Below, piece by piece: positions 3,400 through 63,730 of a DNA stretch of 64,000 bases. The translations under genes were made by a program, and so were the position numbers. Origin of the DNA: Clostridiales bacterium (GTDB taxonomy: Bacteria > Bacillota > Clostridia > Oscillospirales > CAG-272). The notes below the pieces were generated by a model. It did no database searches, had not been told where the DNA came from, and worked only from the letters and a program-made list of their open reading frames with translations. How positions within the stretch are numbered: the first letter of the stretch is position 1; every line of letters starts with the position of its first letter. The stretch spans positions 1 to 64,000 of the forward strand of contig JAAWDG010000003.1 in the NCBI GenBank assembly GCA_022793655.1, read 5' to 3'.

Positions 3400-5893
3400 A
3401 CCAAGTTTCTCCTATCGAAGTTTGTGCGACAAGGGGCACCGAAAGGCTCATCACATTTTCCATTTCGGTTTGCAAGATGCGCGCCGCCAAAGAGGCGCAC
3501 TCCCTGTTCGCTTCAATCACAAGCTCGTCATGGACCTGCAAAATAATCGCCGCGTCGAGGTTGGCTTCTTGCAGCGCCTTATGCACCTTCACCATCGCCA
3601 ACTTCATCATGTCTGCCGCAGCGCCCTGAATCGGGCTGTTCATGGCCACCCGTTCACCAAACGAACGCAGCATAGCCTTGCCGGCTGATAGTTCGGGTAT
3701 ATAGCGCCGCCGACCAAAGAGAGTGGTCACATACCCATCCTCTTTGGCTTGTTCTACTACATTGTTCAAATAGTCAGCCACGCCCGGATAGGTCCGCATA
3801 TAAGAATCTATATAATCTTTTGCTTGTTTCTTGGTAACGCCAAGGTCCTGGGCCAGTGCAAAATCACTAATGCCATATACAATGCCGAAATTCACGGCCT
3901 TGGCCCGCTTGCGCATTTCAGCCGTCACACCCGCGGCGGGTACACCAAAGGCCGAAGCGGCCGTCAGCGCATGAATATCTACATTGTCTAAGAACGCCTG
4001 AATCATGGTGGGATCATTCGCCACATGCGCAAGCAGCCGCAGTTCAATTTGCGAATAATCGGCATCCACTAACACATAATCCTGATTTTCAGGAACAAAA
4101 TACCGCCGCAGCACACGGCCGATTTCCGTTTTGATGGGAATATTCTGTAAGTTCGGTTCAACCGAGGAAAGCCGCCCTGTGGCCGTCACCGTCTGCTGAA
4201 ATCGGGTGTGCACACGGCCTGCTTCATCCGCCGCTGTCGAAAGGCCAACCGCATAGGTTGAGTTGAGCTTTGTCAGCTGCCGATACTCTAACACAAGGTC
4301 CACAATGGGATAGAAGGGACGCAGCCCCTCTAACACCTCGGCAGAAGTCGAATAGCCGGTTTTTGTCTTTTTCTTCGTAGGAATCTGTAGTTTGTCAAAC
4401 AAGATGTGACCAAGCTGTTTCGGCGAATTGATATTAAATTCCTCACCGGCCAACAAATAAATATTCTCGGCCAGCACATGCGCCGCCTGTGTCAATTCTT
4501 CCGAATAGGCATGAAGCCCGTCCACATCCACCTTAAAGCCTTTTTTCTCCATCTCGGCCAAAACAAAGGCGCAGGGCAACTCAATTTGCTCGTACAGTTC
4601 CTTGACGCCCGTCTCGGCCATGCGCGCCGATAGATTCTCCCACAGCCGATAGAGCAAATCTGCCTCATCCGCCGAGGTCATAGAAAGATAGGTTTTCGCT
4701 AACCGGTCCACCGAATAATCGGCGGCCGCCGTGTCCAGCACATACCCCGCCAACGAAACATCAAAGGCGCAGGAACGAAAAACAATGCCCTCTGCATCAA
4801 GCTGATGCCAAAGGCTCTTTGCATCATGCACAATCAACCGGTAGTCAGTCTCTTCAAACAACACACGCACGTCGGTGAGTGAATCAAACGAGATCTTCAC
4901 ATGCTCATCCGCCGCAAGATACAGATACCCCTCTTCTAAGAGAAGGCCATAAGGTTTCCCTTTTTGCACCTGGTCAAGGCTTGCCGGACAATACTCGGCC
5001 GCATCGGCCTGTTCCTCTAACGAAAGCCGGTCAAGCAAAGAATAAAGCTCTAATTCTTTTAACAAATCAGTCAGTTTTTTTGTTTGATAACCCGTGAATG
5101 CCACATCGTCAAGCGACAAGCCCACCGGCACGTCGGTGCAAATGGTGGCCAAATCACGCGAAAGCAGCGCGCTGTCCCGCCCGGCCGCTAACTTTTTTTT
5201 CACACCGGCCGATAAGTCGGCCGTTTCATAGGTTGCAAGCAGATTGTCTAAATCATGAAAATCGGCTATGAGTTTCAGCGCCGTTTTTTCACCAATACCG
5301 GCTACACCGGGAATATGGTCAGAGGCATCGCCCATCAGCGCTTTCACATCGACGAATTGCGATGACAGCACACCGTATTTTTCGGTGAATACCGCGGGCG
5401 TATAAGCCGTTGTTTGGCCGGTTGAGGCAAGCAGCACGGTCGTATTTTCATTTACAAGCTGAAGCGCGTCCCGATCACCGGTTAAAAGATAAGCATGAAC
5501 GCCGCGCTCATTCGCCATACGCGCAAAGGTGCCTAACAAATCGTCCGCCTCATAGCCCTCTTGCTCGGCTACATAAAAACCAAGTCCCTTCGCGCATTCT
5601 TTGGCATAGGGCAGCTGCACAGCTAACTCCTCGGGCATGCCTTTGCGGCCCGCCTTGTATTCGGCATAAGCCTTATGCCGAAAGGTCGGCCCTTTTAAAT
5701 CAAAAGCCGTCACCGCATAGGCCGGCGCAAGCTCGGCGCAGTGCTTCAGCATAATATTCGTGAAACCATACACCGCTTGGGTAAACAAACCGTCCTTGGT
5801 CGTCAGCGGTCTGATGCCGTAAAAAGCACGGTTCAAAATACTGTTGCCATCTACAACGAGTATGCATGGTTTGGTTGATTGCTGCATTTGCAT
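3386..5893 (-). CDS. polA: DNA polymerase I
   Basis: 5'-3' exonuclease N-domain (VDGNSILNRAFYG) and family A polymerase motifs (DADYSQIELRLLAH, KAVNFGIVYG, QVHDELVIEA); start placed at MQMQQST. Confidence 0.97.
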   Translation of the reverse strand: MQMQQSTKPCILVVDGNSILNRAFYGIRPLTTKDGLFTQAVYGFTNIMLKHCAELAPAYAVTAFDLKGPTFRHKAYAEYKAGRKGMPEELAVQLPYAKECAKGLGFYVAEQEGYEADDLLGTFARMANERGVHAYLLTGDRDALQLVNENTTVLLASTGQTTAYTPAVFTEKYGVLSSQFVDVKALMGDASDHIPGVAGIGEKTALKLIADFHDLDNLLATYETADLSAGVKKKLAAGRDSALLSRDLATICTDVPVGLSLDDVAFTGYQTKKLTDLLKELELYSLLDRLSLEEQADAAEYCPASLDQVQKGKPYGLLLEEGYLYLAADEHVKISFDSLTDVRVLFEETDYRLIVHDAKSLWHQLDAEGIVFRSCAFDVSLAGYVLDTAAADYSVDRLAKTYLSMTSADEADLLYRLWENLSARMAETGVKELYEQIELPCAFVLAEMEKKGFKVDVDGLHAYSEELTQAAHVLAENIYLLAGEEFNINSPKQLGHILFDKLQIPTKKKTKTGYSTSAEVLEGLRPFYPIVDLVLEYRQLTKLNSTYAVGLSTAADEAGRVHTRFQQTVTATGRLSSVEPNLQNIPIKTEIGRVLRRYFVPENQDYVLVDADYSQIELRLLAHVANDPTMIQAFLDNVDIHALTAASAFGVPAAGVTAEMRKRAKAVNFGIVYGISDFALAQDLGVTKKQAKDYIDSYMRTYPGVADYLNNVVEQAKEDGYVTTLFGRRRYIPELSAGKAMLRSFGERVAMNSPIQGAAADMMKLAMVKVHKALQEANLDAAIILQVHDELVIEANRECASLAARILQTEMENVMSLSVPLVAQTSIGETWYENK

Positions 5894-6014
5894 AAAAATC
5901 CCTCGATCTTGATTCACTTAGTCCATCGCCCCTTTGGCGCGCAAGACAAAAACCGAATCAAAACATTCATTTTATTTATTATATCAAATATATGTAAATT
6001 TTTCAAATTTTTAT

Positions 6015-6043
6015 TTGACTTACCCGTTTTAATTCAGTATAAT
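6015..6043 (+). promoter_or_regulatory. Sigma-A-type promoter
   Basis: TTGACT-17 bp-TATAAT upstream of the NYN-domain gene. Confidence 0.7.
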
Positions 6044-6151
6044 GATGAACATGGCTGCATCGTTTGATCCTTTTTGTTCGGCTTTTTTCCGACATAAACA
6101 GAAATCTTTAAGGACCAAACGGCAAGCAAAACAATTGGAAAGGAGGTAAGT

Positions 6152-14289: not shown

Positions 14290-14560
14290 TGGCCGAAAAT
14301 TTGTCTTGTTACCCGTTAGGGATAACCAAGCAAATTTCAGTTCCCTCGAAATTTAACGATGCTAGTTGTTCCGGCAGGTGTGCATGCGTACCGGCACGAC
14401 CAGTTAAATTTTCCAAGACACCTGATAAGGTTTCTTGTCTATACTATCAAGTTTTAGCTATCTCGAAATTTGACGATTTCGGCCCTGCCGAAATTTCGCT
14501 TGGTTAAGCGAAAAGGCAAATTTCCCAAGACACCTGTAAGGTGTCTTGCCTATACTATGA
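14290..14560 (-). repeat. Structured intergenic repeat family, locus R1 (2 units, minus orientation)
   Basis: On minus strand: ATAGTATAGG-CAAGACACCT-TAC-AGGTGTCTTG-GGAAATTTGCC...CGCTTAACCAAGCG...TTTCGGCAGGGCCGAAA...TCAAATTTC-GAGATAGCTAAAACTT, then a second unit about 111 bp on. Confidence 0.85.
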
Positions 14561-18371: not shown

Positions 18372-18780
18372 GATTGTATGATAACCTTTCCGGCATTCAA
18401 TCATTTGACCATTCCAGCTTCGCCCAACTCTGCCCGACTTCGCCGTCATTTCGCTTGGACAAGCAATAAAATAAACTTTTTAAAATCAAGCCAACAGCTT
18501 GCTTTAATTCGATCATAAAATTTCAGCTACCATAAAGATTGGCGGATGATGCTGATTCTATCGACAGATCGTGCACCTGTGCGGGCGTTAGTACGGCCCG
18601 TTAACCATTCCCAAGAAACTCAAAGTTTTCTTGTATAACCCGGAAGTTTTCTTCTATTATAACATAAAATTTTCAGCTCTCTTAAAGTTTATCGTTTTCA
18701 GCTTCGCTGAAATGCAGCCTTGTAGGCTGCAAGGTAAACTTTCTAAGAACAAACCATATGGTTTGTTCTTATTATAACAC
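18372..18780 (-). repeat. Structured intergenic repeat family, locus R2 (1 intact and about 2 degraded units, minus orientation)
   Basis: On minus strand: GTTATAATAAGAACAAACC-ATAT-GGTTTGTTCTTAG-AAAGTTTACCTTG-CAGCCTACAAGGCTG-CATTTCAGCGAAGCTGAAAACG-ATAAACTTT-AAGAGAGCTGAAAATTTTATGTTATAATAG. Confidence 0.85.
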
Positions 18781-26747: not shown

Positions 26748-26803
26748 GCGTCCGCTCGATACTTCACTTGCCAAACCGAACAAATTGCGCTTGATTTACA
26801 TAT

Positions 26804-27200
26804 GATACAATAAGAATAACCCTTACGGGTTATTCTTAGAAAGATTGACTTGCCACCCATTAAAGGGTGACATTCCGGCTATGCCGAAAACGCCAATCTT
26901 TCCAGTTGCTTAAATTCCGTTAGGATACAATAAGAATAACCCTTACGGGTTATTCTTAGAAAGATTGACTTGCCATCCATTAAAGGGTGACATTCCGGCT
27001 ATGCCGAAAACGCCAATCTTTCCAGTTGCTTAAATTCCGTTAGGATACAATAAGAATAAGCCTTACGGCTTATTCTTAGAAAGTTCATCTTACAGCCCAT
27101 CAGGCAGCATTCCAGCAGAGCTGGAAACGATGAACTTTCCGGCAACTTGAATCCTGGTGGGCTCTATAAGCATAACCCTTACAGGTTTATTCTTCAAAAA
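26804..27200 (+). repeat. Structured intergenic repeat family, locus R3 (three tandem 120-bp units plus partial H1)
   Basis: Units start at 26804, 26924 and 27044 (GATACAATAAG...). By eye units 1 and 2 differ at one base (CCACCC/CCATCC); unit 3 is diverged with compensatory stem changes. Confidence 0.95.
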
Positions 27201-27397
27201 TTTCGACCCAGCCGAACTCGTCCGACAGCTTTTCTTCCGGATGTCGCACGACAAGATAACTAAATTTCATCATACAATAAAAACAGGCCTTGCGGCCTGT
27301 CTTATAAGGCAATCCTATGAACAAGCGAATCGGCCCAATCGCTCGGACCGTTTTCGCTCTTTTACAACACGCAAAAATCAAGAAACAGGAGAATACA

Positions 27398-43374: not shown

Positions 43375-43490
43375 ACCCATCTTTCCTGTAATCCTTGTGG
43401 GTTATTCTTATAGTTGCTAAAACTTTATTTTTATTATATAATAGAAACTGCAAGCGCAAGCCTTACGGCTTGCGCTTGTGGTGAGTTTGT
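43375..43490 (+). repeat. Structured intergenic repeat family, locus R4 (partial unit)
   Basis: TAGTTGCTAAAACTTTATTTTTATTATATAATAG linker/box followed by H1 CAAGCGCAAGCC-TTAC-GGCTTGCGCTTG. Confidence 0.7.
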
Positions 43491-43533
43491 TTCTTATAAA
43501 AAAATAAGATAATAAAAAGGAAAATAAAAGACA

Positions 43534-53917: not shown

Positions 53918-54206
53918 TGTGGTACAATAAGCTAAAATCGAAGATTTGCACTGCAAGTTTACCGTGCGTCTTATATAAGACGCAGCCGATTTCATCGGCA
54001 CCGATAAACTTGCCGGTAACTGAAATTTTGAAGTACAATAAGTTAAAATCTTCGATTTTAACTTAGAAAATTTGTCTTGCCGCATTTCTGCCTGCGGCAT
54101 TCCGGCTAAAGCCGGACACGCCAAATTTTAAGACCCATCAAACCTGTTCGGCAACAAGTTTTTCTTGCGGCTTACGTAAGCCGCATGCCGGAAAAACAGT
54201 TTAACG
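53918..54206 (+). repeat. Structured intergenic repeat family, locus R5 (two units plus partial third)
   Basis: TACAAT boxes at 53923 and 54034 (111 bp); H1 TTAAAATC-TTC-GATTTTAA; P1 AAAATTTG/CAAATTTT; H3 TCCGGC-TAAA-GCCGGA. Confidence 0.85.
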
Positions 54207-63587: not shown

Positions 63588-63730
63588 ACAAATCTCCGAT
63601 TTGTTCTATGATACCACAAAGTTTTAGCTACCTAAAAGTTTATCGGTTCCGGCAGAGCCGGAATGTCACCCTTTTGGGTGGCAAGATAAACTTTAGGAAC
63701 AAATTTCTGATTTGTTCCATTATACTATAA
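63588..63730 (-). repeat. Structured intergenic repeat family, locus R6 (one intact unit plus partial, minus orientation)
   Basis: On minus strand: TATAATGGAACAAATCAGAAATTTGTTCCTAAAGTTTATCTTGCCACCCAAAAGGGTGACATTCCGGCTCTGCCGGAACCGATAAACTTTTAGGTAGCTAAAACTTTGTGGTATCATAG. Confidence 0.9.

What the first reader, a model, noticed from the sequence alone, without database searches (positions are those of the whole stretch)
26804..27200. Dispersed structured tandem-repeat family: 120-bp units with compensatory stem changes
Seen directly: after the tRNA-Thr terminator, three tandem units start exactly 120 bp apart (26804, 26924, 27044), plus a fourth partial H1. Each unit is TACAAT-AAG | H1 hairpin | P1 5' arm | CTTG | H2 | ACATT | H3 | P1 3' arm | linker. 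Unit 1: H1 AAGAATAACCC-TTAC-GGGTTATTCTT, P1 GAAAGATTG/CAATCTTTC, H2 CACCC/GGGTG, H3 around CGGC-TAT-GCCG. Unit 3 differs but stays paired: H1 AAGAATAAGCC-TTAC-GGCTTATTCTT (C-G swapped to G-C), P1 AAAGTTCATC/GATGAACTTT, H3 TTCCAGC-AGA-GCTGGAA. Related units occur at five other loci here (14.3, 18.4, 43.4, 53.9 and 63.6 kb), always intergenic and in both orientations. Inference: a structure-selected element, either a hairpin-mobilised non-autonomous repeat or a small structured RNA whose box doubles as a -10. I do not recognise it as a named family.
Basis: partly seen in the sequence, partly recalled or inferred. Interest (0 to 1): 0.85.

Follow-up and report, generated by a model that had tools for sequence, protein, structure and literature searches.

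The report
Mobile repeats landing on promoter -10 boxes
A small folded DNA element, present in about a hundred copies in this clostridial genome, has repeatedly inserted at one exact spot, the -10 box where RNA polymerase opens gene promoters; families of the same build but different sequence do the same in other genera, which points to an undescribed kind of promoter-seeking mobile DNA.

Summary
Three 120-bp tandem units lie at 26804-27163, with further units at the other listed loci. The family has about 113 CM hits in the 1.84-Mb genome, and its four helices covary strongly. The anatomy is TATAATAA, hairpin H1, a three-way junction P1[H2,H3], a tail, and a second TATAAT. Rfam has no match. 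TTG occurs exactly 17 bp upstream in 32 of 77 arrays (background about 2; P about 6e-26). At four orthologous sites the element is absent from one of two congeners and the promoter is already there. The -10 is repeated at the right end, and left and right copies covary locus by locus (p<5e-5), as expected of a target-site duplication. Two other genera carry their own 54-60-copy families, different in sequence but with the same architecture and -10 target. IS200/RAYT (Y1), reverse-transcriptase and IS110 genes were not found in the host genome. Best reading: non-autonomous, oriented mobile elements that insert at promoter -10 boxes and leave a new -10 behind. The enzyme is unknown. Nearest precedents (TnGBS/ISLre2/ISKra4) insert 15-17 bp upstream of the -35.

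The parts
26801..26811 (+). TATG-A-TACAAT, extended -10 box at the left end of the array (target sequence)
   Evidence: sequence; left ends of 77 arrays coincide with -10 boxes
26804..26923 (+). unit 1: H1 26812-26822/26827-26837, P1 26839-26847/26894-26902, H2 26854-26858/26865-26869, H3 26876-26879/26883-26886, then tail
26924..27043 (+). unit 2, its own -10 box TACAAT at 26926-26931
27044..27163 (+). unit 3, diverged but paired; -10 box at 27046-27051
27165..27203 (+). partial unit: degenerate -10 and H1 only
27273..27303 (+). H1-only remnant with TACAAT box
   Evidence: sequence; repeat family D4
14335..14555 (-). array of two units
18434..18778 (-). one full unit (18671-18778) and one partial unit (18434-18513)
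43444..43529 (+). weak, degenerate unit
   Evidence: E=0.009
53921..54142 (+). array of two units at a promoter also occupied in G001
63622..63726 (-). one unit of the AACAAATC subtype
5850..6060 (-). empty site: intact TTGAAA-17-TATAATAA promoter, occupied by two units in congener G001 (L061:14979-15203)

Best explanation
The units are copies of a non-autonomous mobile DNA element of about 105-115 bp that inserts, in one orientation, at the -10 hexamer of sigma-A promoters. SHOWN: the left end lies directly after the -10 (TATAATAA) of a pre-existing promoter, and a second, locus-matched copy of the -10 follows the right end; the right end often places a TRTG-type extended -10 motif before that copy (tail CTTTATG-N-TATAAT). 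INFERRED: insertion makes a staggered cut around the -10, or an equivalent exchange, that duplicates about 8-12 bp. Every insertion then leaves two -10 boxes, both new targets, so elements pile up head to tail in the same orientation, and the new -10 at the right end can keep the downstream gene expressed. INFERRED: the folded ends (H1 plus the three-way junction) are what the mobilising enzyme recognises; the enzyme acts in trans and is not identified. The target is the DNA that RNA polymerase melts in the open complex, so targeting through the polymerase or its bubble is plausible but untested.
For: TTG exactly 17 bp upstream of the left -10 in 32/77 arrays, other spacings mean 2.06 and at most 6, binomial 6e-26. 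Same test in two other families: 14/19 in G013 (3e-19) and 10/22 in G033 (1e-9). Empty orthologous sites with the promoter already present: window 5.9 kb vs L061:14979, L086:1762 vs L074:7792, L074:9348 vs L086:3091, L062:12314 vs L018:6177. Left and right -10 copies covary by locus: p<5e-5 in G000 (n=47), p=0.004 in G001 (n=30). Head-to-tail arrays of mixed subtypes. High copy number in G000 and G001, none in congeners G002 and G003. Downstream gene co-directional in 38 of 49 arrays. Structure covaries.
Against: No enzyme found and no autonomous copy. About half of the left ends lack a TTG -35 at 17 bp, including the array of the finding. A few arrays sit elsewhere, for example directly behind a stop codon (L025:11429). 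The duplication is inferred from covarying flanks, not read off an empty allele of the same species; right flanks have diverged between species. Some left/right pairs do not match.
Confidence: 0.7

Rival explanations
1. Structured leader RNA: the unit is a 5'-UTR regulatory RNA (attenuator, processing site or riboregulator) transcribed from the adjacent promoter. It spread because it is useful, and selection acts on the RNA fold.
For: Strong covariation, position between promoter and co-directional gene, some sites occupied by closest-matching units in both species.
Against: In the own family G-T mispairs (51) are no commoner than A-C mispairs (65), though G013 and G033 lean to G-T. Transcription from the left -10 would start inside H1 and cut its 5' arm (inference). 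No Rfam match. Locus-specific duplicated -10 boxes, mixed tandem subtypes and absence from congeners are not expected of a leader RNA.
Confidence: 0.12
2. MITE-like derivative of a DDE transposon with promoter preference, such as the p-MULT (TnGBS/ISLre2/ISKra4) kind: an ordinary transposase cuts at both ends and makes an 8-10 bp duplication.
For: Duplication of about 8-12 bp inferred. [quoted passage not shown]
Against: No terminal inverted repeats in any of the three families (sequence inspection). p-MULT elements insert 15-17 bp upstream of the -35, not at the -10. No transposase found with the same ends among the right-end motifs inspected. The presence of p-MULT transposases in this genome was not tested.
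Confidence: 0.13
3. REP/RAYT-like element moved by an IS200/IS605-type Y1 HUH transposase acting on single-stranded hairpin ends.
For: Hairpin ends without inverted repeats and one fixed orientation relative to a short target (sequence).
Against: No Y1_Tnp match in seven genomes, while five control genomes rang. Flanking duplications are not made by this family (established knowledge).
Confidence: 0.05

Closest known systems
TnGBS ICEs and ISLre2 / ISKra4 insertion sequences (p-MULT 3 and 4 DDE transposases; PMC3942029)
   Same: Oriented insertion at a fixed position relative to sigma-A promoters
   Different: They insert 15-17 bp upstream of the -35, have inverted repeats, encode a transposase and are 1.1-52 kb long; these units are about 115 bp, noncoding, lack inverted repeats and join at the -10 itself, which is repeated
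BOX, RUP and SPRITE repeats of Streptococcus pneumoniae (PMC3049150)
   Same: Short, folded, high-copy intergenic repeats; BOX is modular with tandem parts; BOX and RUP have target duplications
   Different: BOX and RUP have terminal inverted repeats; different fold; no -10 target is described in the passages read
REP / BIME repeats with RAYT transposases (PMC2817692)
   Same: Hairpin-ended non-autonomous repeats in composite arrays
   Different: BIMEs have REPs in alternating orientation; no Y1 transposase here; -10-box target and flanking repeats here
Integron attC arrays (from general knowledge)
   Same: Head-to-tail arrays of folded, sequence-variable but structure-conserved units behind a promoter
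   Different: Dispersed at dozens of promoters instead of one attI; no cassette genes; different fold; integrase not tested

Membership tests
Described Rfam RNA family | Match at gathering score | tested here: not met
   Only tRNA-Thr is found in the window
REP/RAYT or IS200/IS605 | Y1 HUH transposase in the genome | tested here: not met
   PF01797: 0 of 7 genomes; controls positive
MITE | Terminal inverted repeats shared with an IS | tested here: not met
   By inspection, left AAGAATAA/AAGAACAGC/AATCTCAAA and right CTTTATG/ATTCATG/TTTTATG ends are not inverted repeats; no partner IS seen
MITE | Target-site duplication | tested here: inconclusive
   Flanking -10 copies covary by locus, but no same-species empty allele was available
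p-MULT promoter-targeting elements (TnGBS/ISLre2/ISKra4) | Insertion 15-17 bp upstream of the -35 | tested here: not met
   The join is at the -10, 23 bp downstream of the start of the -35 hexamer
p-MULT promoter-targeting elements (TnGBS/ISLre2/ISKra4) | Mutator-type DDE transposase in the genome | not tested
Retroelement or IS110-type (bridge RNA) element | RVT_1 or DEDD_Tnp_IS110 gene in the host | tested here: not met
   None in G000, G001 or G033

The most novel reading that the evidence does not exclude
A new class of mobile DNA: non-autonomous, hairpin/three-way-junction elements without inverted repeats that integrate into the single-stranded -10 bubble of the RNA polymerase open complex, duplicate the -10, rebuild a promoter behind themselves and so stack up head to tail; lineage-specific families exist in at least three genera of one clostridial order, driven by an unknown recombinase.
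Probability: 0.33. Interest if true: 0.92.

Novelty: new variant of a known kind. Interest (0 to 1): 0.76.

Why it matters
Bacterial transposons known to read promoters insert upstream of the core promoter. An element that takes the -10 hexamer itself as target, copies it, and leaves the gene with a possibly rebuilt promoter would show how high-copy mobile DNA can live inside promoters at little cost. It would also reshape 5' leaders and promoter annotation of dozens of genes per genome, and its recombinase could become a tool for writing into active promoters.

Tried and rejected
Rfam: only tRNA. Y1 transposase, reverse transcriptase (one weak hit in G013 only) and IS110 (only in G003, which lacks the repeats): not in the host. 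Autonomous copy: right-end motifs without a CM unit turned out to be internally deleted units or chance matches, none with a transposase. Plasmid and phage collections: no match. Terminator reading: the only terminator-like sites in the region are on the other strand and outside the three full units. Literature searches gave no description of this family; the library is open-access text only. Position-by-position mapping of the duplicated stretch was blurred by ambiguous -10 calls in AT-rich flanks, so its length is given only as about 8-12 bp. G324 hits (L053, L054) share the fold but not the TATAAT site and are left out of the claim. Order-wide prevalence (2 of 397) is likely an underestimate, because R1 barely sees the other families and stricter filters were used.

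Full report
WHAT IS THERE. Three direct repeats of 120 bp start at 26804, 26924 and 27044, followed by an H1-only copy at 27165 and another H1 remnant at 27273-27303 (sequence). Each unit is a TACAAT box and AA, hairpin H1, then P1 enclosing two hairpins (H2, H3), then a tail (AGTTGCTTAAATTCCG... here; GGTAGCTGAAACTTTATG in many copies) that runs into the next TACAAT. Unit 1 folds as ssDNA with z=-7.4 and unit 3 as RNA with z=-9.3.

COPIES. Iterated profile search and a covariance model (R1) find 113 matches at E<=1e-3 in the genome (1.84 Mb in 25 contigs, clostridial, with a stage II sporulation protein P gene). Among 47 G000 arrays examined, 24 have one unit, 17 two, 5 three and 1 four. Units of different subtypes stand in the same array, head to tail.

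STRUCTURE. On 57 units, 91.1% of cells of the 36 pairs are paired (77.8% when shuffled), 30 pairs show changes on both sides, and no shuffle reaches the observed covariation; sliding the partners by one column drops pairing below 50%. A second subtype keeps the fold with different P1/H2/H3 (AAATTTAACTGG...CCGTTAAATTT). In the own family G-T and A-C mispairs are about equally common (51 and 65), as for a fold that matters at DNA level or on both strands; G013 and G033 lean to G-T, so this point is only suggestive.

TARGET. The left end of an array is not arbitrary. Aligned on the -10, a TTG occurs exactly 17 bp upstream in 32 of 77 arrays; spacings other than 16-18 average 2.06 and never exceed 6. 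Of 62 arrays with TAnnnT, 44 have TG one base before it. The downstream gene is co-directional in 38 of 49 arrays (simple ORF caller). Comparison of G000 with G001 gives empty sites in which the promoter stands without the element. Window 5.9 kb has TTGAAA-17-TATAATAA, and in G001 (L061:14979) the same promoter is followed directly by two units. The same holds, in one direction or the other, for L086:1762/L074:7792, L074:9348/L086:3091 and L062:12314/L018:6177. At these loci the simplest reading is that the promoter came first.

DUPLICATION. After the right end a second -10-like box often follows. Its variant matches the left one of the same array better than those of other arrays (G000 p<5e-5, G001 p=0.004): GATATCATA, GATGCAATAA, GGTATAATGG, GATATTATA and TACAATCAGAAT occur on both sides of their arrays. 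This is the signature of a target-site duplication of about 8-12 bp. It could not be read directly against an empty allele, because right flanks have diverged between the species. The tail often puts TG-N before the copy, an extended -10 (TGnTAnnnT at 23 of 77 right ends and 19 of 57 internal boundaries, 4.4 and 2.8 expected).

TURNOVER. Of 15 G000 arrays with an identified G001 counterpart, about five are empty in G001 and the rest occupied or degenerate. At three of seven co-occupied loci whose units could be compared the units are each other's closest (old, shared insertions); at the others they are of different subtypes, as repeated hits on the same promoter or replacement would give. The array of the finding itself has a degenerate counterpart in G001, not an empty site.

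OTHER GENERA. Weak R1 hits led to two further families, in G013 (other genus, same family; 60 copies) and G033 (other family, same order; 54 copies), each private to that genome among 40 relatives. Sequences are unrelated by eye, but the layout is the same: TATAATAA, H1, P1[two hairpins], tail ending in ATTCATG or TTTTATG, TATAAT (pair counts). Their left ends also sit on promoters: TTG at exactly 17 bp in 10 of 22 in G033 (1e-9) and 14 of 19 in G013 (3e-19). Some G033 copies show rare -10 variants on both sides (TAGAAT in L154, TAAAAT in L158). That the three families are one class is inferred from architecture, target and weak CM hits, not from demonstrated sequence homology.

MECHANISM. The shown facts (promoter first, join at the -10, -10 repeated, fixed orientation, head-to-tail growth, lineage-specific bursts) fit an oriented insertion reaction whose target is the -10 region. 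Each insertion creates two -10 boxes and hence two new targets. That the target is the DNA melted by RNA polymerase suggests guidance by the polymerase or its bubble; this step is speculation. The enzyme is unknown: no Y1, RVT_1 or IS110 gene was found in G000, G001 or G033. DDE families and site-specific recombinases remain open.

KNOWN RELATIVES. TnGBS, ISLre2 and some ISKra4 elements insert 15-17 bp upstream of the -35 of sigma-A promoters in one orientation (PMC3942029). This is the nearest functional precedent, but it differs in site, size, ends and coding content. BOX and RUP repeats of pneumococcus are similar in scale and in having target duplications, but have terminal inverted repeats (PMC3049150). 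Nothing found describes this family.

LIMITS. Draft genomes only; no transcription data; about half of the arrays lack a clear TTG -35; the finding's own array has only an extended -10; literature limited to open-access text; recombinase search incomplete.

Noticed in passing
L063:4470-4650 (-), L062:5648, L069:10460, L070:9348 (-), L087:3195, L098:1630 (-): A recurrent variant has an extra module, GACTTCCAGC..GCTGGAATGTCGTACTT, sometimes doubled, in place of the P1 3' arm, in both G000 and G001. It breaks P1; its origin is unexplained.
   Followed up: partly
L053, L054, L121, L124, L128, L131, L134 (genome G324): A family with the same H1 plus three-way-junction fold and tandem units, but without TATAAT at its left end: perhaps a relative with another target.
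   Followed up: no
L018:6177-6399 compared with L018:6407-6515: Where the target reads CAATCAG instead of CAATAAG, two units have a matching change in the H1 3' arm (CTGA for CTTA) and the third has not; the outer H1 5' arm seems to come from the target.
   Followed up: no
L025:11429-11651 vs L073:8082-8103: One array sits directly behind a stop codon (GGATAA) instead of a promoter, an exception to the -10 rule with a clean empty site in G001.
   Followed up: partly
L163:207, L169:240, L150:452 (genome G033): Several G033 units are preceded by the same short sequence GCAAACATTTTTGCTTCATGG with its own small hairpin, so a second repeat may be nested at their left ends.
   Followed up: no
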